Shown here: positions 17,754 through 53,889 of the stretch, in pieces
Layout: each line of letters starts with the position of its first letter
How positions within the stretch are numbered: the stretch's first letter is position 1
Assembly (NCBI RefSeq): GCF_004323735.1
Contig: NZ_CP036455.1
Coordinates: 305,101 to 369,100 of the forward strand
Direction: 5' to 3'
Length of the DNA stretch: 64,000 nt
Source of the DNA: Streptomonospora litoralis
GTDB lineage: Bacteria; Actinomycetota; Actinomycetes; Streptosporangiales; Streptosporangiaceae
Translations under genes and position numbers: made by a program
Notes under the pieces: model-generated
What the model was told of the DNA's origin: nothing
Seen by the model: only the letters and a program-made list of their open reading frames with translations
Databases searched by the model: none

Positions 17754-17884
17754 GCCGTCGGCGAGCACCCGGCGCGGTGACCGCAGGCGCAACTCACCGG
17801 CGTCCTCGCCGCCGCTTTCCTCTGAAGGCCACCCCGCACCCGGCAGACCAACAGGACCGCACAGCGGGCCGGCGTTCTTGAACG
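17754..17884 (+). repeat. Dispersed intergenic repeat, copy A
   Basis: About 131 bases beginning GTCGGCGAGCACCCG, continuing through GTCCTCGCCGCCGCTTT and CCCGGCAGACC and ending ACCGCACAGCGGGCCGGCG. The same ordered modules occur at 26440-26566 and repeatedly at 53330-53889. It lies between convergent genes, with its right end five bases from the stop codon of the minus-strand gene at 17889. Function unknown. Confidence 0.6.
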
Positions 17885-17888
17885 GGGC

Positions 17889-18161
17889 TTAGCCCCACAG
17901 GCGGCGCATGGTCCAGTCGCCGGTGGTGCCGTCGCAGGTGATGTCGGCGATGCTGAGCTCACCCTCGGGCGACTCCGCGGCCACGCGGACAAGCCGCACG
18001 TCGGTGGCGGTGGCCTGGACGCCCGGGCGCGCGGGCGCGTCCGGCGGGCCCCAGTTGCCGATGATGCGCCGGACGCGGTAGGTGCGGTCGCGCCAGGCGA
18101 AGAACGCCGGGTGGCCGCCGATGGTGGAGCTTACGTCGATCCGTTCGTTGTAGAGACTCAC
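17889..18161 (-). CDS. Small DUF6504-like protein behind an SOS box
   Basis: About 90 residues from the GTG at 18161: YNERIDVSS, then AFFAWRDRTYRVRRIIGNW, then a strand-rich end (ADITCDGTTGDWTMRRLWG). The HPAFFAWRDRTYRV core resembles DUF6504, small proteins often found with the imuB/dnaE2 mutasome; this is from memory and uncertain. A perfect LexA-type box sits 13 bases upstream of the start, so I infer DNA-damage induction. The frame stays open 12 codons further up, but that would place the LexA box inside the gene. No dnaE2 or imuA' gene is in the window. Confidence 0.6.
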   Translation of the reverse strand: MSLYNERIDVSSTIGGHPAFFAWRDRTYRVRRIIGNWGPPDAPARPGVQATATDVRLVRVAAESPEGELSIADITCDGTTGDWTMRRLWG

Positions 18162-18173
18162 CCGGCCATCGTA

Positions 18174-18189
18174 TCGAACAAGTGTTCGA
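18174..18189. promoter_or_regulatory. LexA (SOS) box
   Basis: TCGAACAAGTGTTCGA has perfect 7-base arms and matches the Gram-positive/actinobacterial LexA consensus TCGAAC-N4-GTTCGA. It ends 13 bases from the start of the minus-strand gene at 17889-18161. A transcript from here would have a very short leader. Confidence 0.8.
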
Positions 18190-18642
18190 ATTTGCACGGG
18201 GGTATGCCGTGTCGCCGAGCCGACCTGCCGCTGGAGTGATGCGGCGACTCCGGCGGGCTCCCGCCCGGTGCGAGTTGCAACGCCGCGGTTCCGTACTGCT
18301 CGGGCCGCTCGGTCCGCGCATGCGCCCGCGTCTCCGATCAGCGCCGCGGTTTCAGGTCCGCCGGACGGCCGGTGAATTCTCCGTCCACCTTAGAGGTGCT
18401 GCTGTCCCGCCCGCGGGTGTGCGGTCTGGCGCGAGTGCGGTCGCGTGCGCGGCGAACGCCCGCTGTGCCGGGGTTTCGCCGCGGCGGCCGGTTCCCGGAA
18501 GGTGTAATCCTTCGGCGTGTCGCGCCCCGTGCCGTGCGTCGGCGACGGCGCCTGTTCGCTCGGGCGGCGAGCGACCGACCGATTGGTATGTCTATGCTGG
18601 AACCGGCTTCACGACGCGGCAGACCGGAAGACGGGAAGACGC
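18190..18642. other. Spacer between the SOS-box gene and the TetR gene
   Basis: Gene-free. Frames running in from upstream of the TetR start (18517 on) lack homology to TetR proteins. Promoters for both flanking divergent genes should lie here. Apart from the SOS box no site was recognised. Confidence 0.4.
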
Positions 18643-19275
18643 ATGCAGAACACGGACGGCCTACAGCGGTCGGAGACCGCACCCGATCGCAGCCTCGCGG
18701 TTCCCGACCGGCTGCTCTCGGTCGCGACGCGGCTCTTCGCCGAGCACGGCTTCGAACGGACCTCCGTGCAGGAGTTGGTCGCCGCGGCCGGGGTGACCAA
18801 GGGAGCCATGTACCACTACTTCACCTCCAAGGACGACCTGCTGTACGCGATCTACCAGCGTGTGCTGTCTATGCAGATGCAGCGGCTGAACGGCTTCGCC
18901 GCGGCGGAGGGCCCGGTGCGCGACCGGCTGCGCGAGGCGGCGGTCGACGTCGTACACACCACTGTGGACAACCTCGACGACACGCGGATCTTCTTCCGGT
19001 CGCTGCACATGCTCTCCGCGGACCGGCAGACCGCCGTACGCAAGGAGCGCCGCCAGTACCACGAGCGCTTCCGCGCGATGATCGAAGAGGGGCAGAGCCA
19101 GGGCGTGTTCCGCACCGACGTGCCGGCCGACATCGCCGTCACCCAGTACTTCGGCGCGGTCCACCACCTCAGCACCTGGTACCACGCCGACGGCGAACTC
19201 ACCGGAACGCAGGTCGGCACCTATTTCGCCGACCTCTTCCTGGCCGGGCTGCGGCCCGAGGCGGCGGCCGGGTAG
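18643..19275 (+). CDS. TetR/AcrR-family transcriptional regulator
   Basis: 210 residues. The N-terminal HTH is textbook: LLSVATRLFAEHGFERTSVQELVAAAGVTKGAMYHYFTSKDDLL in pieces at about residues 22-65. The C-terminal ligand domain (HTTVDNLDDTRIFFRSLHML, QYFGAVHHLSTWYH) resembles the group regulating fatty-acid, steroid or acyl-CoA metabolism (KstR2-like, TetR_C_33 type), but the ligand is not known. GGGAAG precedes the ATG by about seven bases. It stands alone, so the target may be itself or a distant operon. It converges on the M48-like gene with a 40-base gap. Confidence 0.85.
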   Translation: MQNTDGLQRSETAPDRSLAVPDRLLSVATRLFAEHGFERTSVQELVAAAGVTKGAMYHYFTSKDDLLYAIYQRVLSMQMQRLNGFAAAEGPVRDRLREAAVDVVHTTVDNLDDTRIFFRSLHMLSADRQTAVRKERRQYHERFRAMIEEGQSQGVFRTDVPADIAVTQYFGAVHHLSTWYHADGELTGTQVGTYFADLFLAGLRPEAAAG

Positions 19276-19315
19276 TACCCGTGCGGGTCGGCATACCGGC
19301 CTCCGCCGCGGGAAC

Positions 19316-20332
19316 TCACAGGAACACGCGGCCCGCGCGGGTGCGGTCGCGGATGGCGGCCATGCGCCGGGTGCTCGCGGGGCGGCTGGAGAGCAGGTTG
19401 TACAGGAACAGGAAGGGCCCCCGGTCGGTGCGGGCGCGCTCGGCCATCTCGCTCATGTTCACCTGTGCGTAGAGGTGCTTCCCGCCGACGAGCAGGCGGA
19501 TCGCATGAGCGCCCTCGGGGCAGTGCGCGTGCGCGTAGTTGTCGGCGGTGTACTCCCTCGCGCGGGAGAGGGAGGAGCCCAGCACCGGAACCAGCCGGCC
19601 CGCCGCCGTGCCGGTGCGCAGCCAGAAGGACGTGTGGCCGGCGGCGATATGACCGAGTTGGTGGGCGACGACGAAGCGCAGCGCGTCGGGGTCGCGCAAC
19701 CGGCCGCCGATCTCGAACAGGTCGCTGGAGACCACGATGTAGCGGCGCGGGCCGTGGCTACCCGCCCAGGAACGCAGCCGCCCCCCGTCCTGACACACGT
19801 AGGCTTCGGGGGTGCATTCCAGGCCCATCTGCGCGCTCAGTCGGCGGATGGCGTGCTCCGCTTCGGGGAACTGCGTCGGGGATATCCGCACCGAGTGCGC
19901 GCGCTGGCGAGCTTGCAGCAGACCGCTTGCCGCCCAGCAGGTGCCCGGAACGCCCGCGAAGAGGATTCCGGCCCCCCATAGCGCGGCGCCCTCGGCGGTC
20001 GACAGCGTGTGGCCGGCTGCGGCGAGTACGACCGCGGTCACCAGCAGCGCGGCCGCGGTGAGAGGCCACTCCCAGGGATGGCGGCAGACCGGCGGGGGTT
20101 CGGTCGGCGGCCCGCCGCCGAGGCGGGGGACCGATCCCGCGGCGTGCGTGACGGGGCGAGTGGGAGCGCGGTGAGACGCAGCGGGCGCGGCCCGGAGCGC
20201 GCGAGGCTGCTGCCGGCGGGAGAGCGGTGCCGGGGTGCGCGTGCGCGCCGAACGCGGCGGCACCGCCCGCGTGGCCGTCCGCGGTGGTGGCATGCGGTGC
20301 TGACCGCCGTCGGAGGCCGCCTTCTGCGTCAT
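19316..20332 (-). CDS. M48-like membrane metallopeptidase homologue with HQLGH instead of HExxH
   Basis: 338 residues. The first 85 are basic, Pro/Ala-rich and disordered. Two hydrophobic segments follow (about 89-108 and 113-137), then a cytosolic M48-like domain: VSSDLFEIGGRLRDPDALRFVVAHQLGHIAAGH. The zinc ligands His224, His228 and Glu260 (SRAREYTADNYA) are kept, but the catalytic Glu is Gln225 (codon CAA). Known M48 enzymes need that Glu, so this is likely inactive or regulatory. GGGGGAGGG precedes the chosen ATG; an in-frame start 18 codons upstream is weaker. It follows the DivIVA-motif genes on the same strand, separated by a hairpin. Confidence 0.75.
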   Translation of the reverse strand: MTQKAASDGGQHRMPPPRTATRAVPPRSARTRTPAPLSRRQQPRALRAAPAASHRAPTRPVTHAAGSVPRLGGGPPTEPPPVCRHPWEWPLTAAALLVTAVVLAAAGHTLSTAEGAALWGAGILFAGVPGTCWAASGLLQARQRAHSVRISPTQFPEAEHAIRRLSAQMGLECTPEAYVCQDGGRLRSWAGSHGPRRYIVVSSDLFEIGGRLRDPDALRFVVAHQLGHIAAGHTSFWLRTGTAAGRLVPVLGSSLSRAREYTADNYAHAHCPEGAHAIRLLVGGKHLYAQVNMSEMAERARTDRGPFLFLYNLLSSRPASTRRMAAIRDRTRAGRVFL

Positions 20333-20529
20333 GGTGCTGCCCTCCCCCGTACGCCGTGCCTGCTGCGACACGCGCCTGCACGCCAAGTTATCGCATATTA
20401 CTTTCCGTATCGGATCGTGGTTGAAGCAATTTGAGCGTGTCCGCAGGAGCGGATCTTGCGGGTGGTCCGCTTCGTGGGGAATCGTGCGGCTGCTCGCGGC
20501 GGAACGGCTGCGCGTCCCGTCCGGCCGAT

Positions 20530-20571
20530 GTGCGGGAGCACGGCGGTTCGGCGGCCGCCGTACTCCCGCAC
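20530..20571 (-). terminator. Hairpin downstream of the 251-residue DivIVA-motif gene
   Basis: Arms 20530-20546 and 20555-20571 form 16 base pairs with one mismatch around an 8-base loop. It starts 14 bases beyond the gene end at 20585 and lies before the M48-like gene, so it probably terminates or attenuates the upstream minus-strand operon. There is no T tract. Confidence 0.55.
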
Positions 20572-20584
20572 CCCGGCCCGCGGC

Positions 20585-21340
20585 CTATCGGGCCTCTTCG
20601 TAGTGCCGGAACTCCTGGGCGAGGAAATCGAGGAACGCGTCGACTTGGGCGGGGTCGTAACCGGGCCGGGCACGCGTGGTGGAGAACTGGACCCGGTCCA
20701 CCTGGGCGGCGGTCAGCGGTGCGCGCTCGGAGTGGCCGTGCAGCAGCGCCTCCAGCGTGGTCTCTGCGCTGTCGAGGAACGCGTCGACCTCCTCCTCGTT
20801 GTAGCCCGTGGTGAGCCGGGTCGTGGAGAACTGCTGGTTGCGGATGTCCTCGGGGCGCAGTGCCGGCCGTCCGCCCCGTGCCGAGGGCGGCGGCTCGGAC
20901 GGTGCGGGAGGCGGCCCCGTCGGCACCGGAGGCGGTCCCATCGGATTCGGAGGCGGAGGGGGAGGGCCGGGCGCCGCCTCGCCGGGATGGTGCCGCGGGT
21001 TGCGCGGGGCCTGCGGCGCTTGGAGCGGGCGGGCGGTCTCGGGCCACGCGGCCTCGGAGGGGCGGACAAGCCCGTGCGCCCGGAGATCGGCGGCGACCAC
21101 GTCGAGGAAGTGGTCGACTTCCTCCTCGTCGTAACCCGGGCTCAGCCGCGTGGTCCGGAACTTGGCGCCCTCGACCTCCTCGGCGGTTATGGGCGGCCCG
21201 GAGCGCGGTCCCCCCTGGAGGCCCACGAGCGTGGCCTCGACCCGGTCGAGCAGGACGTCGACGTCGTCCTCGTTGTATCCGGCGCGCAGGCGCACCGTGT
21301 TGAACTGCTTGCTTCGGATGTCAGCCGGTGTCAGAGGCAT
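20585..21340 (-). CDS. Protein with four DivIVA-type motifs and a proline-rich hinge
   Basis: 251 residues. Four copies of a short DivIVA N-terminal motif occur: residues 5-40 (IRSKQFNTVRLRAGYNEDDV), 52-88 (KFRTTRLSPGYDEEEV), 163-200 (QQFSTTRLTTGYNEEEV) and 211-247 (VQFSTTRARPGYDPAQV). Pairs 1-2 and 3-4 are split by a Pro/Gly-rich hinge (91-160). In DivIVA/Wag31 this motif forms a membrane-binding coiled-coil dimer that marks curved poles and guides tip growth. There is no long coiled-coil tail here, so it is not Wag31 itself. It follows a second four-motif gene and an amidase on the same strand, suggesting a cell-envelope role. Confidence 0.75.
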   Translation of the reverse strand: MPLTPADIRSKQFNTVRLRAGYNEDDVDVLLDRVEATLVGLQGGPRSGPPITAEEVEGAKFRTTRLSPGYDEEEVDHFLDVVAADLRAHGLVRPSEAAWPETARPLQAPQAPRNPRHHPGEAAPGPPPPPPNPMGPPPVPTGPPPAPSEPPPSARGGRPALRPEDIRNQQFSTTRLTTGYNEEEVDAFLDSAETTLEALLHGHSERAPLTAAQVDRVQFSTTRARPGYDPAQVDAFLDFLAQEFRHYEEAR

Positions 21341-21533
21341 GGGTACATTGTGCCGATTCCCGGGCGGTGCACGAGCAGGGCCCGCGGGACTTCGCCCAGG
21401 TCGGGCCCGCGGCGGCCGCGCGGTGGGGCGGGCGCGGCGCGCCGGAGCGCCCGTGGCGCGCCGCATACGGAGGAGAAGCAGGTCAAAGCGCTGTGTGCGC
21501 ACCGGGTTGCGTCGGGGCCGCGGCCGCGGGCGG

Positions 21534-22109
21534 TCAGCCGGCGGCGGGAGGGCCGCCCTCCAGTTCGGTGCACAGCGCATCGACGGCGGCGTCCACCTGC
21601 CCGCGGTCGAACCCGCGCAGCGTCTTGGGCAGCGCGTCGCGCCCGCGGCGCAGTTCGGCGGCAGCGGTGCGGGCCGCCGCCGCGTCGGCGCTCCCGCTGC
21701 GCAGCGCACGTATCGCCGCGACGCCGGATTCGACGAGCTCCGCCGTGTCGCGGGAGTCGTAGCCGCGCAGGACGCGGTCGAAGGCGAACTCCGGCTCCGC
21801 CTGCTCGGCGCGCTGCGGCGCCGCGCCTTCCGTGCTCCGGGCCGCCGCGAGCCGCTCCAGCAGCCGCTCGCAGGCCGCGTGTACCTGGGTGCGGTCGTAA
21901 CCGCGCAGCACGACGTCGAAGGAGGCCAGGCTGCGGGCCTCGTCGAGGGTGACCGCGTGCGGGGAGGCGGGTTCGGCGATGGTCCGCAGCACAGCCTCCA
22001 GCAGGGTCTCCACCTGGCTGCGGTCGTAGCCGCGCAGCACGACGTCGAACTCCAGCGGGGCGTCGGCGGCGTCCCGCGACGCCTCGGGTGTGGGGGATGA
22101 ATCCGTCAT
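21534..22109 (-). CDS. Second protein with four diverged DivIVA-like motifs
   Basis: 191 residues. The motif FDVVLRGYDRSQV (21-33) recurs as FDVVLRGYDRTQV (64-76), FDRVLRGYDSRDT (110-122) and PKTLRGFDRGQV (161-172), each followed by a short amphipathic helix. This is the GYD..QV core of DivIVA N-terminal domains, but more degenerate than in the neighbour at 20585. No signal peptide or membrane segment is seen, so it is cytosolic and perhaps membrane-associated through these motifs. It lies 45 bases behind the amidase gene and 193 bases before the other four-motif gene, probably in one operon. Function is unknown. Confidence 0.7.
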   Translation of the reverse strand: MTDSSPTPEASRDAADAPLEFDVVLRGYDRSQVETLLEAVLRTIAEPASPHAVTLDEARSLASFDVVLRGYDRTQVHAACERLLERLAAARSTEGAAPQRAEQAEPEFAFDRVLRGYDSRDTAELVESGVAAIRALRSGSADAAAARTAAAELRRGRDALPKTLRGFDRGQVDAAVDALCTELEGGPPAAG

Positions 22110-22154
22110 CGCGCCAGTATCCTGCAGACCCCCTCAAGCAGGACACCGGGGTCC

Positions 22155-23054
22155 CTACCCGTCGTGCCCGCCCTGTTCGTCCCGCAGGAACCGGCTGATG
22201 CCCGCGGCGATGGATTCGGCGGCACTCTCCCGCCATTCGGGGTCCGTCAGCTTCGCGGCATCGGCGCTGTTGCGCATGTTGCCGGCCTCCAGGAAGACCT
22301 TGGGCACATCGGAGAGGTTGAGTCCGCCCAGGTCCGTGCGCAGGTCCAGACCGTCCTCGGCGATGTAGTCGGCCCGCGGGCGGCCGGTGCCCTCCTCGAA
22401 CTCCGCGCGCAGGTCCACGGCCAGGCGGTGGGAGGGTTCCGCGATGTCGTCGGTGTAGCCGTCCAGTTCGCCGGGCGCGATGACATGGAAACCGCGGCCG
22501 CTGGGCGGACCGCCGTCGGCGTGGATGGAGATCGCGGCGTCGGCGCGGGCCTCGTTGCCGATCTCGGCGCGCTCGGTGATGCACGGCCCGACGCTCTCGT
22601 CGTCCTCGCGGGTGAGCACCACCTCGGCGCCCCGCTCCTCCAGGTGGCTGCGCAGCCGCTTGGCGACGTCCCAGTTGAACGCGTGCTCGGTGTAGCCGGT
22701 GTCGGTCTCCGCGCCCACCGTGTCGCACGCTTTTCGCCCGTGGCCCGCGTCCACGGATTCGCTGATGCGGTCGGGCGCATCGGCGTTGCCGCCGTTGTGG
22801 CCCGGGTCGACGACCACGGTGGCGCCTTCCAGCGGCCCGGCGGGTTCCGACGCGCCGGGTGTGCCGCCGGGTCCGTCGGCGGAGCCGCGGTTGTCGGCGG
22901 CCGTGGAGCCGGGGGAACCGGGTGGGGGAGCGGCCGACGGGGCGGGTGTGCTGCTCCCGGTGGCCGCCGCGCATCCGGAGAGGGCGAGGACGGCCGCCGC
23001 GGCGAACGGGGCGAATCGCGGCGTCGTCCCCGCTACGGCGGTTTTCATGCGCAT
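22155..23054 (-). CDS. N-acetylmuramoyl-L-alanine amidase, lipoprotein (Amidase_3)
   Basis: 299 residues. Lipobox LSGC near residue 28, then a Ser/Pro/Gly/Ala-rich linker to about 75. The catalytic domain has the Amidase_3 zinc set: VVVDPGHNGGN (His), TGYTEHAFNWDVAKRL (Glu), AAISIHADGG (His) and the catalytic Glu of VFLEAGNMRN. It is a surface-anchored peptidoglycan amidase that cuts between MurNAc and the stem peptide; the layout recalls mycobacterial Rv3717-like enzymes. It is first in a minus-strand run with the two DivIVA-motif genes, which suggests coordinated wall remodelling. The ATG three codons inside is a possible alternative start. Confidence 0.85.
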   Translation of the reverse strand: MRMKTAVAGTTPRFAPFAAAAVLALSGCAAATGSSTPAPSAAPPPGSPGSTAADNRGSADGPGGTPGASEPAGPLEGATVVVDPGHNGGNADAPDRISESVDAGHGRKACDTVGAETDTGYTEHAFNWDVAKRLRSHLEERGAEVVLTREDDESVGPCITERAEIGNEARADAAISIHADGGPPSGRGFHVIAPGELDGYTDDIAEPSHRLAVDLRAEFEEGTGRPRADYIAEDGLDLRTDLGGLNLSDVPKVFLEAGNMRNSADAAKLTDPEWRESAAESIAAGISRFLRDEQGGHDG

Positions 23055-23234
23055 GATGGCTCAGGGGGTCCTTGCGTCGGCGGTGGGGGCGGATCACCAA
23101 CCTAGCCGCTCTGCGGAACTTTTGCCGCGGCTGACGCGTCATATCGTGAGTAGTGCGGTGATCCGATCCCGACCGCGCGCGGCCCGTCCGCGCCGGCCGG
23201 ATCGCCCAGCCACACCGATGCCGAGGTGAAGTCA

Positions 23235-23594: not shown

Positions 23595-23644
23595 GCGGCC
23601 GACCGCGGCCGTACCGCCCGCCCCGCCCTGCCGCGGAAGCCGAT

Positions 23645-23987: not shown

Positions 23988-26402
23988 GTGACCTCGGCAT
24001 CCCGCCCCTCCCGCCGTCTCGCCTCTCCCCCGCGCACGCGCAGCGCGTTCACCCCCTTGCGGCCCTTCGACCGCCCGACCCTGCGCTCACCCCGCCCGGG
24101 GGCCGCAGCGGCGGCCGCTCTGATCGCAGCGGCGTCGCTGACCGGAACCGCCGCCACGGCCGATCCCGCCTCGGCCGATTGGAACGGCCAGTGGCAGCGC
24201 GCCAACGAGTGGCACAACGTGCAGATCGAGGGCGGCGGCTTCATCCCCGGCATCGTCTTCAACCAGTCCGAACCGGGCCTGGCTTACGCCCGCACCGACA
24301 TCGGCGGCGCCTACCGCTGGGACGAGGCGCAGCAGAAGTGGAGCCCGCTGCTCGACTGGGTCGGCTGGGACGACTGGGGCTGGACCGGGGTGGCCGGACT
24401 GGCCACCGACCCGGTCGACCCCGACCGGGTCTACGCCGCCGTGGGCACCTACACCAACGACTGGGACCCGAACAACGGCGCCATCCTGCGCTCCGCCGAC
24501 CGCGGCGAGACCTGGGAGGTGACCGAGTTGCCGTTCAAGCTGGGTGGGAACATGCCCGGCCGCGGCATCGAGCGGCTCTCCGTCGACCCCAACGACAACA
24601 GCGTGCTCTACCTGGGCGCCCCCAGCGGCCACGGGCTGTGGCGCAGCACCGACCACGGGCAGACGTGGTCGGAGGTGGCGTCCTTCCCCAACCCCGGCGA
24701 CTACGCCATGGACCCGGACGACTCATCTGGCCTCAACAGCGACAACCAGGGAGTCGGCTGGATCGCCTTCGACCGGAGCAGCGCGTCCCGGGGCGAGCGC
24801 ACCCAAGACATCTACGTCGGCGTGATGGACAAGCAGAACACCGTCTACCGCAGCACCGACGGCGGACAGAGTTGGGAGCGCATCCCCGGCCAGCCCGAGG
24901 GCCACCTGGCCATCGAGGGCGTGTTCGACCACGAGAACGGCCGGCTCTACATCTCCACCAGCGACACCGGCGGCCCCTACAGCGGCGGCAGCGGCGACGT
25001 GTGGAAGTTCGACACCGCGACCGGCGAGTGGACGAACATCAGCCCGGTTCCGTCCGACTCGGCCGACAACCACTTCGGCTACGGCGGGCTGACCATCGAC
25101 CGGCAGAACCCCGGCACCCTGATGGTCAGCACGCAGATCTCCTGGTGGCCCGACATCCAGATCTACCGGACCACGGACGGCGGCGAGAACTGGACGCAAG
25201 CGTGGCGCTACGGCGCCTACCCCGAGCGGATCAACCGCTACGAGATGGACATCTCCGACTCCCCGTGGCTGACCTTCGGCAACGATCCGCAGCCTCCCGT
25301 CACCTCGCCCAAGCTCGGCTGGATGACCCAGGCGATGGAGATCGACCCGTTCGACTCCGACCGGCTGATGTACGGCACCGGCGCCACCCTCTACGGCACG
25401 CGGGACCTGACCGACTGGGACTCCGACGAGACGGTCACCATCGAGCCGATGGCCCGCGGTATCGAGGAGACCGCCGTCAACGACCTCGCCGCACCGCCCG
25501 GCGACACCCCGCTGGTCTCGGCGCTGGGCGACATCGGCGGATTCCGCCACGAGGACCTGTCCGAGGTCCCCGACCTGATGCATACCGGCCCCTTCCACGG
25601 CACGGTCACTTCGCTGGACTTCGCCGAGTCGGCGGCGCAGCGGTTCGTGCGGGTGGGCCGCAACGACGACGACGCATCCGTCTCCCACATCGCCGTGTCC
25701 TCCGACGGAGGCGCCTCTTGGCGGCCCGGCGAGGAGCCCTCCGGCGTTACGGGAGCGGGCACCGTGGCCATGGCGGCCGACGGTTCGGCGATCGTGTGGA
25801 GCACCGAGGGGGCAGGAGTGCAGGTCTCCACCGACTCCGCGGCCTCCTGGTCGGCGTCCTCGGGCGTTCCCGCGGGCGCGCGCGTACAGGCCGACCGCGC
25901 CGACCCGGACGTCTTCTACGCCCATGCCGACGGGGCCTTCTACGTCAGCACCGACGGCGGGGCGACCTTCCAGGAGTCCGCCGCCCGAGGGCTGCCGCAG
26001 AGCAGCGTCCGTTTCGCCGCCGTCCCCGGCCGTGCGGGCGACGTCTGGCTGGCCGGGGGCAGCGAGGGCGGCGCCTACGGACTGTGGCACTCGACCGACT
26101 CCGGCGCCACCTTCGAGCGCGTCGCCGACGTGGACCAGGCCGACACCGTCGGGTTCGGCAAGGCCAAGCCCGGCTCGGACTACCCGGCGATCTACACGAG
26201 CGCCGAGATCAACGGCACGCGCGGGATCTTCCGGTCCGACGACGGCGGGTCGAGCTGGATCCGCGTCAACGACGACCAGCACCAATGGGGCTGGACCGGA
26301 GCCGCCATCACCGGCGACCCCGATGTCTACGGGCGGGTCTACGTGTCCACCAACGGCCGCGGCATCGTCTACGGCGACGTCCAGCCCTACTGGCGGCGCT
26401 GA
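23988..26402 (+). CDS. Secreted GH74 xyloglucanase
   Basis: 804 residues. A long basic N-terminus and hydrophobic stretch AAAAALIAAASLTG form the signal peptide, cut near residue 57. The rest is the double seven-bladed propeller of GH74, with repeated Asp-box-like STDGG...W turns (RSTDGGQSW, RTTDGGENW, RSDDGGSSW). Catalytic Asp104 lies in RTDIGGAYRW and Asp515 in LGDIGGFRHEDL, both conserved positions. The enzyme cleaves the beta-1,4-glucan backbone of xyloglucan. No cellulose-binding module is attached. AAGGAG six bases before the GTG supports this start; an ATG at 23814 is in frame but would spoil the signal peptide. A ROK regulator converges on it. Confidence 0.93.
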   Translation: MTSASRPSRRLASPPRTRSAFTPLRPFDRPTLRSPRPGAAAAAALIAAASLTGTAATADPASADWNGQWQRANEWHNVQIEGGGFIPGIVFNQSEPGLAYARTDIGGAYRWDEAQQKWSPLLDWVGWDDWGWTGVAGLATDPVDPDRVYAAVGTYTNDWDPNNGAILRSADRGETWEVTELPFKLGGNMPGRGIERLSVDPNDNSVLYLGAPSGHGLWRSTDHGQTWSEVASFPNPGDYAMDPDDSSGLNSDNQGVGWIAFDRSSASRGERTQDIYVGVMDKQNTVYRSTDGGQSWERIPGQPEGHLAIEGVFDHENGRLYISTSDTGGPYSGGSGDVWKFDTATGEWTNISPVPSDSADNHFGYGGLTIDRQNPGTLMVSTQISWWPDIQIYRTTDGGENWTQAWRYGAYPERINRYEMDISDSPWLTFGNDPQPPVTSPKLGWMTQAMEIDPFDSDRLMYGTGATLYGTRDLTDWDSDETVTIEPMARGIEETAVNDLAAPPGDTPLVSALGDIGGFRHEDLSEVPDLMHTGPFHGTVTSLDFAESAAQRFVRVGRNDDDASVSHIAVSSDGGASWRPGEEPSGVTGAGTVAMAADGSAIVWSTEGAGVQVSTDSAASWSASSGVPAGARVQADRADPDVFYAHADGAFYVSTDGGATFQESAARGLPQSSVRFAAVPGRAGDVWLAGGSEGGAYGLWHSTDSGATFERVADVDQADTVGFGKAKPGSDYPAIYTSAEINGTRGIFRSDDGGSSWIRVNDDQHQWGWTGAAITGDPDVYGRVYVSTNGRGIVYGDVQPYWRR

Positions 26403-26439
26403 CAGCCGACAGCAAACCGGCGGCGGGCGGCGGGCCTTC

Positions 26440-26566
26440 CCGCTCGCGCGCCCCGCCGCCGGTCCGCCGGCCCGTTGGGCACGGGCCAAGCCCCCGCCGT
26501 CCTCGGCGCCGCTTTAGACCACCGATCCACCCGGTAGACAACAAGGCCGCACAGCAGACCGGCGTT
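26440..26566 (+). repeat. Dispersed intergenic repeat, copy B
   Basis: This contains the right-hand modules in the same order as copy A: GCCGTCCTCGGCGCCGCTTT, then CACCCGGTAGACAACAAGG and CCGCACAGCAGACCGGCGTT. The left part (26440-26490) is more diverged. It fills most of the 176-base spacer between the convergent GH74 and ROK genes. Confidence 0.55.
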
Positions 26567-26578
26567 CTCAACCACGAC

Positions 26579-27859
26579 CTAGGAGGCCCCTTCGTCGGCC
26601 GCGGCGACACCGTCAACCTGCCGCGGGGGGAGCGGCAGCCGCCCGCTCTCCAGGGCGTCGACCATCGCCACCGCTCCGCCCCGCGCAGCCGCGCTCAAGC
26701 CCAGGGACGAGGTCTCGACGAAGCAGCCCCCCGCGTCCGGCGCGAAGGCCAGCTCGCGTACCCCCGAGCGGCAGGAGGGCAGCAGCCACGGCGCCAGCGG
26801 TACGAAATAGCCGCCGAGCACCACCGCGGCCGGGTTGACCAGGTTGACCAGCATCGCCGCACCCCGCCCCAGCCAGGTGCCCGCCGTGTGCAGAGCCTCG
26901 ACGGCGGTGGGCTCCTCTGCGGCGGCGCGGTCGACGGCGGTCTCCACCAGGTCGGCGAGGTCGGCGCGGGTAAGCGCGCCCGCGGGGAAGCGGTCGGGCA
27001 GGGCCGCCCGCAGGATCGACTCGATTCCGGCCAGCGCCTCCAGGCAGCCGCGGCGACCGCAACCGCAGGCGGGGCCGTCCTCGACCATGCGCACGTGGCC
27101 GATCTCGCCGGCGAATCCGGCCGAACCGCGCAGCAGTTCGCCGTTCATCAGCAGGCCCGCGCCGATTCCCACTTCGCCGGTGATGTAGACGAGGTCGCCG
27201 GTGCGGGCCAGGTGGCCGCCGCGGTACTCGGCCACCGCGCCGAGGTTGGCGTCGTTGTCGACGAGGACCGGGATCGGTGACGGTGCCGCGTCGTGCAGCA
27301 GTTCCTCCAGCAGACTGCGCAGGGGGGTCCCGCGCCAGGCGAGGTTGGGTGCTCGCGTGACGATCCCGCCGGGGGAGTCGACGAGCCCCGGCACCGCCAC
27401 GCTCAGTCCGATGACGCTGCGGTGGCTCAGGGCGGGGTCGGCCACGACCGCCCGCACGGCGTCCGCGATGCGGTGCGCGCACGCGTCGGCACCGGCGGAG
27501 CGCGCGTCGAAGGCGATGTGCCTGGTGAGCAGGTCGCGCTCCAGCAGGTCCACGGCGACCACCGACAGGTAGTCGACGTTGACCTCGATCCCGATCGCGG
27601 CGATGGTGAGGCCGTCCAGCGCGAGCATCACGCCCGGCCGCCCTACGCGGCGCTCGGCGGACTCTCCGGTCTCGCACAGCAGACCGCGCGCGATGAGGTC
27701 GGCGACGAGGCTGGAGACGGTGGTCTTGTTCAGCCCCGTGGCGGCGGCCACGGCGGCGCGGGAGCAGGGAGCCAGCGTGCGCACGGCCCGCAGCACCGTA
27801 CCCAGGTTGGCTTCGCGGACGTCGTGGAAGCCGGTGGGGCCGACGCGCATGTCCCGCAT
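26579..27859 (-). CDS. ROK-family transcriptional regulator
   Basis: 426 residues, the usual size for ROK repressors with an N-terminal HTH. Residues about 15-75 form the MarR-like HTH (ANLGTVLRAVRTLAPCSRAAVAAATGL, NKTTVSSLVADLIARGLL). The sugar-kinase-like body follows: VLVDNDANLGAVAEYRGG, GEVGIGAGLLMNGELLRG, and GFAGEIGHVRM. The zinc motif CGCGRRGCLEAL is complete. ROK repressors respond to a sugar or sugar phosphate; XylR/NagC-like proteins are examples. The effector is unknown, but the convergent GH74 neighbour makes a xyloglucan-derived sugar plausible. GGGAGGGAGG precedes the ATG. Confidence 0.88.
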   Translation of the reverse strand: MRDMRVGPTGFHDVREANLGTVLRAVRTLAPCSRAAVAAATGLNKTTVSSLVADLIARGLLCETGESAERRVGRPGVMLALDGLTIAAIGIEVNVDYLSVVAVDLLERDLLTRHIAFDARSAGADACAHRIADAVRAVVADPALSHRSVIGLSVAVPGLVDSPGGIVTRAPNLAWRGTPLRSLLEELLHDAAPSPIPVLVDNDANLGAVAEYRGGHLARTGDLVYITGEVGIGAGLLMNGELLRGSAGFAGEIGHVRMVEDGPACGCGRRGCLEALAGIESILRAALPDRFPAGALTRADLADLVETAVDRAAAEEPTAVEALHTAGTWLGRGAAMLVNLVNPAAVVLGGYFVPLAPWLLPSCRSGVRELAFAPDAGGCFVETSSLGLSAAARGGAVAMVDALESGRLPLPPRQVDGVAAADEGAS

Positions 27860-39709: not shown

Positions 39710-39730
39710 ACAGCATCAGGGTTTCGTTGA

Positions 39731-46396: not shown

Positions 46397-46502
46397 GCAC
46401 GGCCGAGCCGGGGGCAGCAGGGCCACAGCAGGGGGCGCGCCCGCGCGTGCGGGAGGCGCCGCAGGTACGGAGCAGCGCAATGCAGCCCGCATTGGAGTAC
46501 GC

Positions 46503-47978: not shown

Positions 47979-47980
47979 CC

Positions 47981-48964: not shown

Positions 48965-49132
48965 GAGAAGGAAACCGCAGGGCACCACGCAGGCCGTGCC
49001 GCCGCAGTGCGGCGGACGGCACTGCCGGCGGTCCGCGGGGCACCGGCGCCGCGCCGGGCGCCCGGACGCTGTCCTGCGGTCTCGGCGCTTCGCACGGAGC
49101 GGCCGAGCGCGACACCGAGGAGCGATCGCACA

Positions 49133-50821
49133 GTGAATCCGCAGAGTGGTAACCAGGAGTCGTCGCCGAGCACGCCGGACGCATCCCAGCAGCGCGGACA
49201 CGTCGCCTTGGTGGGGGCGGGTCCCGGCGACGCCGAGCTGCTGACTCTGCGGGGCGCCGCGGCGCTCGCCGAGGCCGACGTCGTCATCAACCTCCGCGAG
49301 CCCGGCCCCGAGCTGGCCAAGTACCGCGAGGCGCTGCTGCGGCACTGCGGCGAGGACACCGCCGTGATCGACCAGGCCGAGTGCGGCGGCGAGATCGACG
49401 CCGTCGCCGTGGGCCACGCCCGCGAGGGCAGGCGCGTCGTGCGCCTCTACAGCGGCGACCCGCTGCTGGGCTGCCGCGGCGCCGAACTGACGGCGGCCTG
49501 CCGAGAGGCCGGAGTCGAGTACGAGATCGTGCCCGGACTCTCGTCGGTGACCGCCGTGCCCGCCTTCGCCGGTGTCCCGCTGCTGCCCGAGGGCGTCAAC
49601 GAGGCGCGCATCGTCGACGGCCGTGACCCTGATCTGGACTGGGAGCGGCTGGCCCACGGCGACGCCAGCCTCGTCGTGATGTTCCCCGACGCGCCCGACG
49701 GCGACGGCGCCAAGCACAGCGGCCCCGGTTTCGACCGCCTGTGCAAGACCCTGATCGCCGCCGGCAAACCGGCGAGCACCCCCGTCGCGGTCGTGCGCAT
49801 GGGCTCGACCACCGAGCAGACCACGGTCGCGTCGACGCTGCAGCGGCTGAACGCGGACCTCAAGGCCGCCGACGCCAAGGGGCATAACGTCACCGCGCCC
49901 GCCCTGTTCCTCATGGGCAAGGGCGTCACCGGGGACAAGGAGCCGTCCTGGTTCGAGGGCCGCCCGCTGTTCGGCTGGCGGATTCTGGTGCCCCGCACCC
50001 GGGAGCAGGCCGCCGGGCTCTCCGACCAGCTGCGCGGCTACGGCGCCGTGCCCGAGCAGGTGCCGACGATCTCGGTGGAGCCGCCCCGCACACCCCAGCA
50101 GATGGAGCGCGCTGTGCGCGGGCTGGTCACCGGCCGCTACCAGTGGGTGGCCTTCACCTCCGTCAACGCCGTCAAGGCCATCCGCGAGCGCTTCGAGGAG
50201 TACGGCCTGGACGCCCGCGCCTTCGCCGGGGTGAAGGTCGCCGCGGTCGGCGAGCAGACCGCGGCCGCGCTGCGCGACTTCGGCATCCAGCCCGACCTCA
50301 CACCGCCCGCCGAGAGCCAGTCGGGCTCCGGCCTGGTCGAGGTGTGGCCGCCCTACGACGCCGAGCTGGACCCCATCGAGCGGGTGCTGCTGCCGCGCGC
50401 CGACATCGCGACCGAGACCCTTTCGGCCGGGCTCACCGACCTCGGCTGGGAGGTCGACGACGTCACCGCTTACCGCACTGTGCGGGCGGCGCCGCCGCCC
50501 GCCCCGGTCCGCGAGGCGATCAAGGGCGGCGGCTTCGACGCGGTGCTGTTCACGTCCTCCTCCACCGTCCGCAACCTCGTGGGGATCGCGGGCAAGCCGC
50601 ACAACACGACGGTGATCGCGGTGATCGGGCCCGAGACCGCCAAGACGGCCCAGGAGTTCGGGCTGCGTGTCGACGTCGTCGCGCCGAAAACCTCGGTTTC
50701 GGCCCTGGCGGAGGCGCTCGCGGAGTACGGTGCCACCCAGCGGGCCGAGGCGATCGCCGCCGGCAAGCCGGCACTCAAGCCCAGCCAGAAGCGGCGCGGG
50801 CGGCGCCGCAAGACCGTGTGA
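49133..50821 (+). CDS. Bifunctional uroporphyrinogen-III methyltransferase/uroporphyrinogen-III synthase
   Basis: 562 residues. The N-terminal half (about 20-270) has the SUMT/precorrin methylase fold: VALVGAGPGDAELLTLRGA, RLYSGDPLLGCRGAELTA, VPGLSSVTAVPAFAGVPLL. The C-terminal half (about 275-540) is HemD: ILVPRTREQAAGLSDQLRGYGA, VAFTSVNAVKAIRERF, LLPRADIATETL, and FTSSSTVRNLVGIAG. HemD closes the ring of uroporphyrinogen III; the methylase part would feed sirohaem or B12 if active, but its motifs are looser than in CysG/CobA. A basic Lys/Arg tail ends the protein. GAGGAG precedes the GTG by ten bases. Confidence 0.9.
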   Translation: MNPQSGNQESSPSTPDASQQRGHVALVGAGPGDAELLTLRGAAALAEADVVINLREPGPELAKYREALLRHCGEDTAVIDQAECGGEIDAVAVGHAREGRRVVRLYSGDPLLGCRGAELTAACREAGVEYEIVPGLSSVTAVPAFAGVPLLPEGVNEARIVDGRDPDLDWERLAHGDASLVVMFPDAPDGDGAKHSGPGFDRLCKTLIAAGKPASTPVAVVRMGSTTEQTTVASTLQRLNADLKAADAKGHNVTAPALFLMGKGVTGDKEPSWFEGRPLFGWRILVPRTREQAAGLSDQLRGYGAVPEQVPTISVEPPRTPQQMERAVRGLVTGRYQWVAFTSVNAVKAIRERFEEYGLDARAFAGVKVAAVGEQTAAALRDFGIQPDLTPPAESQSGSGLVEVWPPYDAELDPIERVLLPRADIATETLSAGLTDLGWEVDDVTAYRTVRAAPPPAPVREAIKGGGFDAVLFTSSSTVRNLVGIAGKPHNTTVIAVIGPETAKTAQEFGLRVDVVAPKTSVSALAEALAEYGATQRAEAIAAGKPALKPSQKRRGRRRKTV

Positions 50822-50835
50822 CCAGGGAGCCTTGG

Positions 50836-51819
50836 ATGAACGCCCACTTCCCCGCGGCGCGGCCCCGCCGGCTGCGCCGTACACCCGCATTGCGGCGGCT
50901 GGTCGCCGAGACCCGGGTGCGGCCCGAGGAGCTCATCCTGCCGCTGTTCGTCAAGGAGGGCATCGGCGAGCCCAACCCGGTCGCCTCCATGCCCGGTGTC
51001 GTGCAGCACACCCGCGACAGTGCCCGCAAGGCCGCCCAGGAGGCCGCCGAGGCCGGAGTGGGCGGCCTCATGCTGTTCGGCATCCCCGAGTTCAAGGACG
51101 AGCGCGGCTCCGGCGCGGACGACCCCGGCGGCGTGGTGCAGCGGTCGCTGCGCGACCTCTCCGCCGACCTCGCCGGCGACATCGTGATCATGGCCGACCT
51201 CTGCCTGGACGAGTACACCTCCCACGGCCACTGCGGACTGCTCACCCCCGCGGGCGAGGTCGACAACGACGCGACCCTGGAGCGCTACGCCGCCGTCGCC
51301 ATCGCCCAGGCGGCCGCCGGGGTGGAGGTGGTGGGCCCCAGCGGCATGATGGACGGCCAGGTCGCCGCCATCCGCGCCGCGCTGGACGGCGCCGGCTACA
51401 CCGACGTCGCCGTCCTCGCCTACGCCGCCAAGTACGCCTCCGCGTTTTACGGCCCCTTCCGGGAGGCAGCCGAGGGCGCGCCGCAGTTCGGCGACCGCAA
51501 CGGCTATCAGCAGGACCCCGCCAACGCCGTGGAGGCGCTGCGCGAAGTGGAGCTGGACATCGCCGAGGGCGCCGACATGGTTATGGTCAAACCCGGGCTG
51601 GCCTACCTGGACATCGTCGCCAGAATCGCCGAGCGCGTATCGGTCCCGGTGTCGGCCTACCAGGTCAGCGGCGAATACGCGATGATCGAGGCCGCCGCCG
51701 AGAAGGGCTGGCTGGACCGCGAGAGGGTGATGTTGGAGACCTTGCTCTCCTACCGCCGCGCCGGAGCCGGACAGATCCTCACCTACTGGGCCACGGAGGC
51801 GGCGCGACTGCTCCGCTGA
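50836..51819 (+). CDS. hemB: Delta-aminolevulinic acid dehydratase (porphobilinogen synthase)
   Basis: 327 residues. The two active-site lysines are in VLAYAAKYASAFYGPFR and VMVKPGLAYLD. Other landmarks: LILPLFVKEGIGEPNPVASMPGV, IMADLCLDEYTSHGHCG (metal ligand region), VVGPSGMMDGQVAAIR and VSGEYAMIEAAAEKGW. It condenses two aminolevulinates to porphobilinogen. AGGGAG six bases before the ATG. It follows the hemD gene by 14 bases, completing rex-hemA-hemC-hemD-hemB. Confidence 0.96.
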   Translation: MNAHFPAARPRRLRRTPALRRLVAETRVRPEELILPLFVKEGIGEPNPVASMPGVVQHTRDSARKAAQEAAEAGVGGLMLFGIPEFKDERGSGADDPGGVVQRSLRDLSADLAGDIVIMADLCLDEYTSHGHCGLLTPAGEVDNDATLERYAAVAIAQAAAGVEVVGPSGMMDGQVAAIRAALDGAGYTDVAVLAYAAKYASAFYGPFREAAEGAPQFGDRNGYQQDPANAVEALREVELDIAEGADMVMVKPGLAYLDIVARIAERVSVPVSAYQVSGEYAMIEAAAEKGWLDRERVMLETLLSYRRAGAGQILTYWATEAARLLR

Positions 51820-51915
51820 GCGGGGAACCCACCGTTTCCCCGGGATCGCGGTCGAGGCCGGGGATGCGGAACGCACCACGGCATCGACCGGCGAGACGGG
51901 GAACGGGGAGGCAAC

Positions 51916-52578
51916 GTGGCTCAAGTTGTGCAGAGACGGAAGCGCCGCCGCTCGGTGGAGGGCATGCTGAGCGCCGCCCTGCGCTACGCGGCGCTCGGCT
52001 GGCCGGTGTGCCGCGGTGCGGCCCCCTCGGGAACCGGCGGGCGCGCCTGCGGATGCGATCGCGTGGGCTGCCCCGACCCCGGCGCCCATCCCGTCTCGGC
52101 CACCTGGGGGCTGGAGGCCACCACCGACTCGGAGAAGATCCGCGGATGGTGGAGCACCGACCCCGAGGCGAACGTCATCCTGCCCACCGGCCGGGTCTTC
52201 GACGTGTTCGACGTCCCGGCGGGCGCGGGGGTCATGGCGCTGGCGCGCATGGGCCGCGCCGGAGTGCACGCCGGCCCCGTCGCCGCGGTCGACGCGCAGC
52301 GCTACCTGTTCTTCGTCGCCACCCGCTCGCCCGTCGACGAAGACGAGTGGTGGTCCTGCCACCTCGACTGCATCCCCGAGCGCATCGAGGAGAGCCCCGG
52401 TCTGCGCTGGCACTGCCGCGACAGCTACGTCCTCGCCGCCCCCTCGGTGCTGCCGTCGGGCAACGCCGTCTCCTGGATCCGCGCGCCGCACACCTCGCCC
52501 GAGGAGACATCGCTGCCCGACCCCATCACAGTTCTGGACATCCTCTCCGACTCCTGCGAGGAGTTCCTGCCGTCCTGA
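51916..52578 (+). CDS. Bifunctional DNA primase/polymerase (prim-pol) domain protein
   Basis: 220 residues. The start has MLSAALRYAALGWPVCRGA, typical of the actinobacterial prim-pol N-terminal domain, followed by a Cys-rich loop (ACGCDRVGCPDPGAHP), WGLEATTDSEKIRGWW, and the acidic strand VFDVFDVPAGAGVMALARM. Related proteins in phages and plasmids prime and extend DNA; the stand-alone actinobacterial copies after hemB have no proven role. The helicase part found in plasmid primases is absent. GGGGAGG precedes the GTG. Confidence 0.75.
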   Translation: MAQVVQRRKRRRSVEGMLSAALRYAALGWPVCRGAAPSGTGGRACGCDRVGCPDPGAHPVSATWGLEATTDSEKIRGWWSTDPEANVILPTGRVFDVFDVPAGAGVMALARMGRAGVHAGPVAAVDAQRYLFFVATRSPVDEDEWWSCHLDCIPERIEESPGLRWHCRDSYVLAAPSVLPSGNAVSWIRAPHTSPEETSLPDPITVLDILSDSCEEFLPS

Positions 52579-52733
52579 CGCCGACCCGGTGGACGCGCTC
52601 GTTCCTCCGCCCACGTCCGGAACTGTGACGCCTGCGGCGTGCGGCCTGCGGCCTGCGGTTGTCTCGCCGGTAGCGCGCCCGGCGGGCGGCGTTGGGCCGC
52701 CGCGGGCCGGTCGGCGCGGCTTGGCCCGTCTAT

Positions 52734-52782
52734 CGTGAACTTATGGTCGCAGGAAGGCGTATTCCGCGGCCATAAGTTCGCG
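52734..52782. terminator. Very long hairpin downstream of the prim-pol gene
   Basis: Arms 52734-52750 and 52766-52782 pair over 17 bp (two G-T wobbles); after a bulged A, GGAA (52752-52755) pairs with TTCC (52762-52765), leaving a 6-base loop. The stem is partly AT-rich (GAACTTATGG / CCATAAGTTC), unlike its surroundings. It may be a terminator 155 bases after the gene, or a small palindromic element. Confidence 0.55.
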
Positions 52783-53329
52783 ATCATCGCCGGATGGACC
52801 GGCATAGGGGACCTACCGGCGCCGGTGCGCCGGCTGGGTCTCGCCGTGTCCCCTGCCGGGCCGGCACCGGCCGGAGGCCGCGCGGCGGGGCGCGGTCGCG
52901 GGCGCTCGCACGCCCCGGGGGTGCGCGGGATCGGGGGTCGGGGGCGACGCCGCGTCGCTCATTGCGCCTGGGTGTCGCCTCCGAGAGCCGCACCCCCCGA
53001 TGGGGTGGACTTTTGGGGGCCTATGCCCGTTTTGCGGGTGGCCTCGGCGGGCGCGGCGGCCACGAGACGTACGAAAAGTTGACTCCGGGGCTGTTTTCGC
53101 GCCATTCGGTGCGCCTCGTGCGCCGTCGCCGCCGCGGCGCGGCTGTGGGTCCACTGATAACTCGGGTATTTGTGGGCAAAACACCGCATGTTTTTTCGTA
53201 TTGCGGAATGAGGGTGCGGGGGTGGCGTCTCGGGGCGGCGCCGAGGCGGGTACCGCCGCACGTACGTGCATCTCGTGGCCCCGGTCCGGCTGCATGGCGG
53301 CCGCCGACTGCCCCAGGCCCGGCCCCGCC
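52783..53329. other. Gene-free spacer with possible structured RNA
   Basis: No credible gene. CACCCC/GGGGTG (52991-52996, 53002-53007) forms a perfect hairpin that includes a C6 run. GGCC/GGCC with inner CCCG/CGGG (53018-53043) forms another. TGTGG/CCGCA (53171-53175, 53184-53188) is followed by TG and a T6 run (53191-53196), which looks like an intrinsic terminator. The stretch 53080-53215 has lower GC than its flanks. A small plus-strand RNA ending near 53196 is possible. Confidence 0.35.
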
Positions 53330-53889
53330 GACGTCGGGCGCCTAACCGGCGAGCACCCGGCCCGGTGACCGCGGGCGCCACCCCGTGGTGCCCTCGCCGC
53401 CTCGTCGGCAGCCCAACCGGCGAGCACCCGAACCGACGTCCGCGGTCCCGGCCCCATTCCTGCCGTCGCCGCCCCCCGTCGGCCGCCGCCACCGGCGGGC
53501 ACCGGTACCGGTGGGCGCGGGCCCAGCCCTTCGCCATCCTCGGCGCCGCTTTTTCTCCAGGTCACCCGCTTCCCGGCAGACTGACAAGGCCGCACAGCAG
53601 ACCCGAGCCGCCCCGTCGGCCGCCGCCACCGGCGAGCACCCGAACCGACGACCGCAGGCCCGGCCCCGCTGCCACCGTCGCCGCCGCTTTTTCTCCAGGT
53701 CACCCGCTTCCCGGCAGACTGACAAGGCCGCACAGCGGACCGGGGCCGCCCCCGTCGGCCGCCGCCACCGGCGAGCACCCGCCCCGGTGGGCGCGGGCCC
53801 GACCCCACCGCCGTCCTCGCCGCCGCTTTTCCAGTGAAGACCACCTACAACCCGGCAGACCGACAAGGCCCCACAGCAGGCCCGAGCCG
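53330..53889 (+). repeat. Array of dispersed repeat: two short and three full units of about 138 bp
   Basis: Full units start at about 53475, 53612 and 53751 (spacing 137-139). Each runs from CCCGTCGGCCGCCGCCACC through GCGAGCACCCG, CCGCCGCTTTTTCTCCAG and CCCGGCAGACTGACAAGG to CCGCACAGCAGACC. Two truncated 72-73-base units (53330-53401 and 53402-53474) hold only the left module. Units 3 and 4 are nearly identical over 58 bases (53545-53602 and 53683-53740). The array fills the right part of a convergent spacer. Single relatives occur at 17754 and 26440. Confidence 0.75.

What the first reader, a model, noticed from the sequence alone, without database searches (positions are those of the whole stretch)
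17754..53889. Dispersed intergenic repeat family found only between convergent genes
Copies at 17754-17884 and 26440-26566 and an array at 53330-53889 share ordered modules: GCGAGCACCCG, CCTCGCCGCCGCTTT, CCCGGCAGAC-ACAAGG, CCGCACAGCRGRCCGG. All have the same strand orientation in the window and all three loci lie between 3' ends of converging genes. I counted about eight convergent spacers in the window; three carry it, and I saw no copy elsewhere beyond a partial core near 1086. It resembles no IS end, REP or known RNA I can name. It could be a mobile miniature element, a terminator/insulator, or a precursor RNA.
Basis: seen in the sequence. Interest (0 to 1): 0.72.

Follow-up and report, generated by a model that had tools for sequence, protein, structure and literature searches.

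The report
Jumping repeats parked behind bacterial genes
The repeats are pieces of large gene-less jumping DNA elements, present in dozens of copies in this actinobacterium, that mostly settle just behind genes, sometimes exactly in a gene's stop signal, which they hand back.

Summary
The repeats are real but are fragments of a larger element. In the host genome (inferred: Streptomonospora litoralis M2) the fetched stretches hold 82 element clusters; about 100 genome-wide by extrapolation. Typical plan: an array of ~137-bp units, a non-coding core up to ~0.9 kb, and a mirrored array; median length 1.08 kb. Intact ends are sharp: TTCTTRAACACGGCYTA, usually followed by G, with two sub-terminal types. 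This reads as insertion at CTAG with TA duplicated. At 16 of 42 intact ends facing a gene's 3' end, the terminal triplet is that gene's stop codon. Convergent placement is a bias, not a rule: 34 convergent, 40 co-directional and 6 divergent of 80. At four examined sites, congeners have element-free spacers; at two others a congener's own version sits behind the same gene. No excess of compensatory pairs, no Rfam match. Best reading: a large, modular, non-autonomous transposon (MITE/foldback-like), kept behind genes by target preference plus selection against promoter disruption. The mobilising transposase was not found; three IS630-type copies in the genome share the target signature but not the terminal repeat.

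The parts
17456..17499 (-). Copy A, left (B-type) end: decayed 17-bp terminus (17456-17472) plus B sub-terminal sequence CCCATTGGAGCCGGACCAACCCAGCAC
   Evidence: B-end type
17497..17542 (-). Copy A, left arm: one partial unit, inverted
   Evidence: nhmmer E 4.8e-5
17581..17717 (+). Copy A, shortened core fragment (core model 106-243)
   Evidence: E 4e-11
17753..17872 (+). Copy A, right arm: one full unit
   Evidence: E 1.1e-21
17875..17891 (+). Copy A, right (A-type) terminus; its last three bases (17889-17891) are the stop codon TAA of the minus-strand gene 17889-18161
26467..26562 (+). Copy B: solo right-arm unit (model 18-120), no core match
   Evidence: E 5e-13
26565..26581 (+). Copy B, right terminus (diverged); last three bases are the stop codon TAG of the minus-strand gene 26579-27859
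52711..53410 (+). Element C, core (model 120-845); overlaps the first partial arm unit
   Evidence: E 2e-188
53344..53473 (+). Element C, right arm, two short (~60-bp) units at 53344-53404 and 53415-53473
53487..53886 (+). Element C, right arm, three full ~138-bp units (53487-53607, 53624-53745, 53763-53886); no left arm and no intact terminus found at this copy

Best explanation
The repeats belong to a large, modular, non-autonomous transposable element (MITE-like, foldback-shaped). Anatomy: terminus, A- or B-type sub-terminal sequence, a head-to-tail array of ~137-bp (sometimes shorter) units, a non-coding core, a mirrored array, and the other end. No gene was recognised inside. SHOWN: this anatomy; ends reading C[TA]AGCC...GGCT[TA]G; ends coinciding with stop codons; high copy number in one species; element-free spacers in congeners at the examined sites. 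INFERRED: a DDE transposase acting in trans, of the IS630/Tc1-mariner kind, inserts the element at TA within CTAG and duplicates TA. CTAG is rare in this high-GC genome outside spacers and stop codons. When the target is a TAG stop, the insertion rebuilds the stop as TAA from the element's own end, so the protein is unchanged. Selection against promoter disruption then removes most upstream insertions, leaving copies behind genes and especially in tail-to-tail spacers. Arms grow by tandem duplication; some cores flip or are exchanged by recombination between copies.
For: Terminus motif 66 times with <=2 mismatches, 0 in the control. In 68 motif matches the bases stay conserved through GGCTTAG (position after TA is G in 50 of 68), then composition is mixed. 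Of 15 elements with both ends scored, 9 have one A and one B end; the core keeps one orientation relative to them at 36 of 46 typed ends. 16 of 42 intact stop-facing ends have the terminal triplet as the called gene's stop codon; one other gene ends inside an element in another frame. TAA is 13 of 22 stops at termini versus 24 of 454 elsewhere, p = 1e-10. CTAG occurs 154 times in 556 kb (1378 or 525 expected), 134 of them at stops or between genes. None of 20 fetched congener stretches around sites A, B, C, L064a and L064b has a unit or core match; both flanks align around element-free spacers at A, B, C and L064b in two to five congeners each. All three IS630-type copies of the same genome sit at TA within CTAG or TTAG.
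Against: No transposase with this terminus was found: the three DDE_3 copies of the own genome have another terminal repeat, and an exact 18-mer scan of named genomes gave 6 records, of which only L230 was opened; none of the six proteins printed from it was seen to be a transposase, though they were not searched against a library. Only 55 intact termini on 82 clusters; most ends are decayed or built differently. The TA duplication is not proved by an exact empty site: congener spacers are too diverged. Of eight recent inter-element tracts of 770 bp or more (94-98.6% identity), none reaches an intact terminus; two end inside both elements, five span one short terminus-less element: more like gene conversion than fresh transposition. 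Two G004 elements lie behind the same gene as a G000 element, so old shared sites are possible. Core conservation is uneven, so a function of the core is not excluded.
Confidence: 0.74

Rival explanations
1. A large structured non-coding RNA family (like GOLLD, ROOL, OLE or HEARO, named from memory), transcribed from the spacers.
For: The core has no Pfam match, is conserved unevenly, and a subset holds a perfect palindrome with matching changes on both sides (read). RNAalifold reports 10 of 105 pairs with two-sided changes. With another scoring, standard pairs make up 0.90 of cells and extra pair types number 196 against 114-136 when slid, and the top mutual-information pair is fully complementary.
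Against: The structure was fitted to these sequences, which by itself lifts pairing and pair types. Pairs with two-sided changes number 38 of 240 versus 32-50 slid, and 39 of 250 versus 32-43 on the other strand; the top mutual-information pairs mostly follow a split between two sub-types. No Rfam match in the window or to the elements in four loci (the only hit was a 16S rRNA gene).
Confidence: 0.08
2. A bidirectional terminator, insulator or supercoil sink (BIME/REP-like) kept by selection at 3' ends and between converging genes.
For: Elements lie close to stops (median 60 bp, n = 108) and away from starts (226 bp, n = 52); convergent spacers are enriched.
Against: Congeners have no unit or core at the examined spacers. 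Half of the copies are co-directional and 6 of 80 divergent. The core differs between species. CTAG targeting plus selection explains the placement without a function.
Confidence: 0.1
3. Not actively transposing: an old family now reshaped and homogenised mainly by homologous recombination and gene conversion. It can hold together with the best explanation for the origin of the sites.
For: Units of different elements average 0.787 identity. None of eight recent tracts reaches an intact terminus. The core is opposite to the usual orientation at 10 of 46 typed ends. No parent transposase was found. Two G004 loci share a neighbour gene with G000 elements.
Against: Recombination alone does not found new sites, and ends sit at one precise motif. 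Congener spacers without an element at A, B, C and L064b point to gain in this lineage, though loss elsewhere is not excluded.
Confidence: 0.35

Closest known systems
RUP of Streptococcus pneumoniae (107 bp, 108 intergenic copies, proposed to be mobilised by IS630-Spn1); passages of PMC2229807 and PMC3049150, and one section of the latter
   Same: Gene-less, intergenic, terminal inverted repeats, TA at the target, over-represented between convergent genes (23 convergent vs 65 upstream of a gene; p = 3.4e-7 in that paper).
   Different: About ten times shorter, no arms of tandem units described there. RUP ends resemble those of its IS630-type partner; here the IS630-type copies have another terminal repeat.
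BOX elements of S. pneumoniae (boxA - variable number of boxB - boxC); PMC3049150, passages and one section
   Same: Modular, variable number of tandem internal units, high copy number, biased to convergent spacers.
   Different: BOX has one array between two unlike ends; here two mirrored arrays flank a core of up to ~0.9 kb.
Foldback elements of animals and plants (recalled; only a search listing seen)
   Same: Long inverted repeats built of tandem sub-units around a variable middle.
   Different: Known to me from eukaryotes only; no sequence relation tested.
IS630 / ISY100 (Tc1/mariner in bacteria); passages of PMC2170065; the CTAG preference is from the title of Tenzen & Ohtsubo 1991 in its reference list
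   Same: TA target and duplication, CTAG preference.
   Different: Those carry a transposase gene; this element has none recognised and its terminus matches no IS found here.
REP/BIME palindromes (recalled)
   Same: Extragenic, at 3' ends.
   Different: 20-40 bp palindromes; the present unit is ~137 bp and not a palindrome.

Membership tests
Bacterial MITE (non-autonomous DNA transposon) | Terminal inverted repeats | tested here: met
   TTCTTRAACACGGCYTA: 66 genome-wide, 0 control; 16 of 82 clusters keep it at both ends
Bacterial MITE (non-autonomous DNA transposon) | No transposase gene inside | tested here: met
   Six ORFs of element C match no Pfam family; other elements were checked only by gene calling
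Bacterial MITE (non-autonomous DNA transposon) | Target-site duplication | tested here: inconclusive
   C[TA]...[TA]G flanks on both sides at L154, L155, L156, L159 and L161; no exact empty site, congener spacers are diverged
Bacterial MITE (non-autonomous DNA transposon) | Small size (usually under ~0.6 kb; recalled) | tested here: not met
   Median 1082 bp, 98-1945 bp, n = 80
Bacterial MITE (non-autonomous DNA transposon) | An autonomous partner with the same terminal repeat | tested here: not met
   Three DDE_3 (PF13358) copies in the own genome have another repeat; other transposase families were not searched
IS630/Tc1-mariner group by target | TA target, CTAG preference | tested here: met
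   the three IS630-type copies of the same genome show the same flanks
IS630/Tc1-mariner group by target | Encodes or is moved by a DDE_3 transposase | not testable with these tools
   needs a transposition assay
Structured non-coding RNA family | Two-sided compensatory changes above control | tested here: not met
   38 observed vs 32-50 slid; other strand 39 vs 32-43
Structured non-coding RNA family | Match to a known Rfam family | tested here: not met
   0 in the window; 0 to the elements in four loci
Foldback element | Long inverted repeats made of tandem units | tested here: met
   same plan in G004
Foldback element | Demonstrated mobility | not testable with these tools
   needs strain comparison or an assay

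The most novel reading that the evidence does not exclude
A lineage of bacterial foldback transposons in the family of Streptomonospora. The inverted-array or inverted-unit design and a ~20-nt arm end (GACAAGGCCGCMCAGCRGACC) persist across four genera while cores and array units are replaced from species to species. They use the TAG stop codon as a safe landing site by giving back TAA. The transposase that reads the ends is still unknown.
Probability: 0.4. Interest if true: 0.7.

Novelty: new variant of a known kind. Interest (0 to 1): 0.55.

Why it matters
It gives a concrete reason why some dispersed bacterial repeats sit behind genes: in a GC-rich genome the apparent target, CTAG, is nearly confined to spacers and stop codons, and an insertion into a TAG stop is repaired by the element's own first base. 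It also shows that long, modular, inverted-array elements, which I know as foldback transposons of eukaryotes, can reach dozens of copies in a bacterium (82.5 kb in the 80 clusters measured). In eight searches of the held library no listed title or abstract start describes this family; most subscription papers are not held.

Tried and rejected
Rejected: (1) Structured RNA: RNAalifold, slid-partner controls and mutual information gave no clear support. (2) Left and right arms co-evolving to pair: opposite arms of one element are hardly more alike (0.792) than arms of different elements (0.787). (3) IS630-type copies as parent: terminal repeat differs. (4) Parent or relative on a plasmid: no match for two queries. 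(5) Exact arm motif in named genomes and viral contigs: 0 (near relatives of the source may be left out there). (6) Coding core: no Pfam hit. (7) Core in other genera: 8 of 297 family genomes have a match at E <= 1e-6, one being G000 itself, the other seven short (E 2e-7 or weaker). (8) The copy near 1086: no HMM support.

Led nowhere: exact target-site duplication from congeners; site L064a, where G001 and G005 align on one side only and G004 carries another repeat; a shared 17-bp terminus in G042, G096 and G012 (their arms end at ...AGCAGACC).

Caveats: genes were called with a codon-usage script of my own, not by an annotation pipeline. With only genes scoring >= 40 the pattern held: 33 convergent, 41 co-directional, 5 divergent of 79 elements against 45, 199 and 64 of 308 background pairs. 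The clusters come from stretches chosen because they held matches; background pairs are from the same stretches. L129 counts as two because an IS110-type insertion splits it, and one L083 cluster is a solitary unit. Two clusters at stretch edges were dropped before the orientation count (80 of 82). Some of the 68 motif matches are not attached to elements.

After the filing check I mended: the description of the recent tracts (I had written that most end inside both elements), the second shared G004/G000 neighbour, the partial core matches in G004, site B, the published chromosome length that does not match, and spacer lengths.
Full report
WHAT WAS CLAIMED AND WHAT IS THERE. The window is G000:C1:305101-369100. 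One array unit searched against its own genome gave 105 matches in tight clusters on both strands. An iterated HMM found 160 units in the window and the first 33 fetched stretches. Nearly every locus has the same plan: units on the minus strand, a gap of mostly 0.2-0.9 kb, units on the plus strand. The 35 gaps examined are largely homologous to one another, mostly 80-91% identical in the matches listed, in either orientation (79 of 1103 matches shown).

COPY NUMBER. A 25-nt core motif occurs 56 times (31 forward, 25 reverse) with up to 3 mismatches, control 0. An arm-tail motif occurs 239 times and a variant of it 288 times, controls 0. In the fetched stretches I count 82 clusters; 217 full-length units fall in 77 elements. 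288 units at about 2.8 per element suggests roughly 100 elements (extrapolation). Length 98-1945 bp, median 1082, n = 80.

ENDS. Aligning outer edges revealed a terminus TTCTTRAACACGGCYTA: 66 genome-wide with up to 2 mismatches, control 0. Letters stay conserved through GGCTTAG and are mixed beyond. Two sub-terminal types exist, A (AGCAGACCGGCG-) and B (CCGATCCAGCAC-). Of 15 elements with both ends scored, 7 are B/A, 2 A/B, 2 A/A and 4 have one untyped end; the core is in the usual orientation relative to the ends at 36 of 46 typed ends, opposite at 10. That fits a transposon with distinct ends and occasional inversion of the core between the inverted arms (inference). Elements such as L154, L155, L156, L159 and L161 read C-TA-...-TA-G on both sides, i.e. 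target CTAG with TA duplicated. Preference for TA in CTAG is on record for IS630 (title in the reference list of PMC2170065; passages seen).

STOP CODONS. Of 55 intact termini, 42 face the 3' end of a called gene; in 16 the terminal triplet is exactly that gene's stop codon; one other gene ends inside an element in another frame. In the window this is so for copies A (17889-17891) and B (26579-26581). Stops lying in termini are TAA 13, TAG 5, TGA 4, against TGA 332, TAG 98, TAA 24 elsewhere (p = 1e-10). At A in G001-G004 and at B in G001 the congener sequence has TCA (stop TGA) at the aligned place, so these proteins were not shortened (read). CTAG is scarce: 154 in 556 kb, 26 at stops, 108 between genes, 20 in coding sequence. 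An insertion at TA in C-TAG gives C-TA-A..., restoring a stop. This follows from the letters; the event was not observed.

PLACEMENT. 34 of 80 elements are convergent, 40 co-directional and 6 divergent, against 58, 233 and 78 of 369 background pairs of the same stretches (p = 5e-7 for convergent, 0.004 for divergent). Edge-to-stop distance has median 60 bp (n = 108), edge-to-start 226 bp (n = 52). From the listings I counted 15 convergent, 19 co-directional and 2 divergent of 36 loci of G004, G012, G042 and G096 with arms and two neighbours. [quoted passage not shown]

SAME PLACES IN CONGENERS. Between aligned blocks, site A has ~568 bases here and 34-87 in G001-G004. L064b has 32-59 in G001, G004 and G005 and 195-424 in G003 and G002. 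At C, G004 and G005 have 37 bases, G001 330 and G002 458, but the neighbouring gene is missing there too. At B both flanks align in G001 and G002. None of the 20 fetched congener stretches has a unit or core match. Against a simple picture of gain: among 13 G004 loci compared with the 54 own sequences then held, L105 lies in the same spacer as L131, and L095 behind the same gene as L126, each occupied by its own species' version. With dozens of copies in both genomes and a preference for such sites this may be coincidence; shared ancestry is not excluded.

WHO ELSE HAS IT. By BLAST the core segment 52860-53300 has only short matches (E 1.8e-4 or weaker) in four of five congeners and none in the fifth. 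G004, which I identify as Streptomonospora sp. PA3 because contig C23 and record NZ_VTZW01000023.1 are both 251,521 bases, has the same inverted-array plan with ~72-bp or ~144-bp spacing; its cores share only parts with ours (11 partial core-HMM matches in 13 loci). It also holds an exact terminus at the stop codon of a convergent gene (L230:1002-1018). In 341 family genomes the arm-tail motif is expanded in five: G000 288, G042 55, G044 21, G012 15, G096 13; every other listed genome has 4 or fewer, about the control level. These five fall in four of 68 genera. G012, G042 and G096 loci mostly show single inverted units 0.1-0.8 kb apart, with cores related within G042 and within G096 and in part between them (listing capped). 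G044's arm matches were not opened.

HOST. G000 has two contigs, 5,814,190 bases, C1 being 5,724,192. The difference, 89,998, equals the published length of the episome phiM2 of S. litoralis M2 (PMC8448680, passages). The chromosome length printed there, 5,878,427, does not match C1; the paper gives it also as the contig before trimming. I infer that strain, without proof.

NOT RNA, NOT CODING.. In one search, 38 of 240 pairs show two-sided changes, against 32-50 with slid partners; the other strand gave 39 of 250 (32-43). Fraction paired and number of pair types do exceed the slid versions, as expected for a structure fitted to these sequences, and the top mutual-information pair is fully complementary; most others are not.

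EVOLUTION OF COPIES. Units within one arm are 0.839 identical on average, opposite arms 0.792, different elements 0.787: tandem duplication within arms, little homogenisation between arms. Eight inter-element tracts of 770 bp or more have 94-98.6% identity. L118/L121 and L057/L079 end inside both elements; five span all of a short, terminus-less element (L119 or L126) and lie mostly inside the other; L120/L123 is mixed. None reaches an intact terminus. This points to gene conversion rather than recent transposition, and is why the recombination rival keeps real weight.

VERDICT. A large transposon-like family without recognised genes, foldback-shaped, with a CTAG/TA target signature, placed behind genes by target choice plus selection; mover unknown.

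Noticed in passing
G000:C1 1968776, 3903579, 5228281 (L174, L175, L176): Three 99.9% identical 1147-bp IS630-type insertion sequences (DDE_3), at TA in CTAG or TTAG; the L174 copy sits on the terminal TA of one of the elements.
   Followed up: yes
L129:3609-5168: An IS110-family transposase gene (PF01548, PF02371) inserted within the right arm of an element.
   Followed up: partly
L072, L060, L116 and others, alignment A1 columns ~122-180: A perfect ~27-bp palindrome in a subset of cores, with matching changes on both sides in several copies.
   Followed up: no
L099:2910-3195, L100:3311-3596, L103:3481-3767, L104:3375-3659 (G004): Inside these cores a ~285-bp stretch is bracketed by loose terminus-like motifs (3-4 mismatches of 18), as if a smaller element were nested in the larger one.
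   Followed up: no
L151 (G004:C21:358400-359700) and L230:550-1015: Another repeat of G004 (GTGCGCTCGGCGGCAAGC..., CCCATTGCCGCA...) in spacers; at L151 the orthologous spacer in G000 carries the present element.
   Followed up: no
window 26404-26465: GC-rich inverted repeat right after the stop codon of the gene ending at 26402, perhaps that gene's terminator, just before copy B.
   Followed up: no
L105 and L095 (G004), L131 and L126 (G000): The same spacer (L105/L131) and the 3' side of the same gene (L095/L126) are occupied in both species by their own versions of the element.
   Followed up: partly
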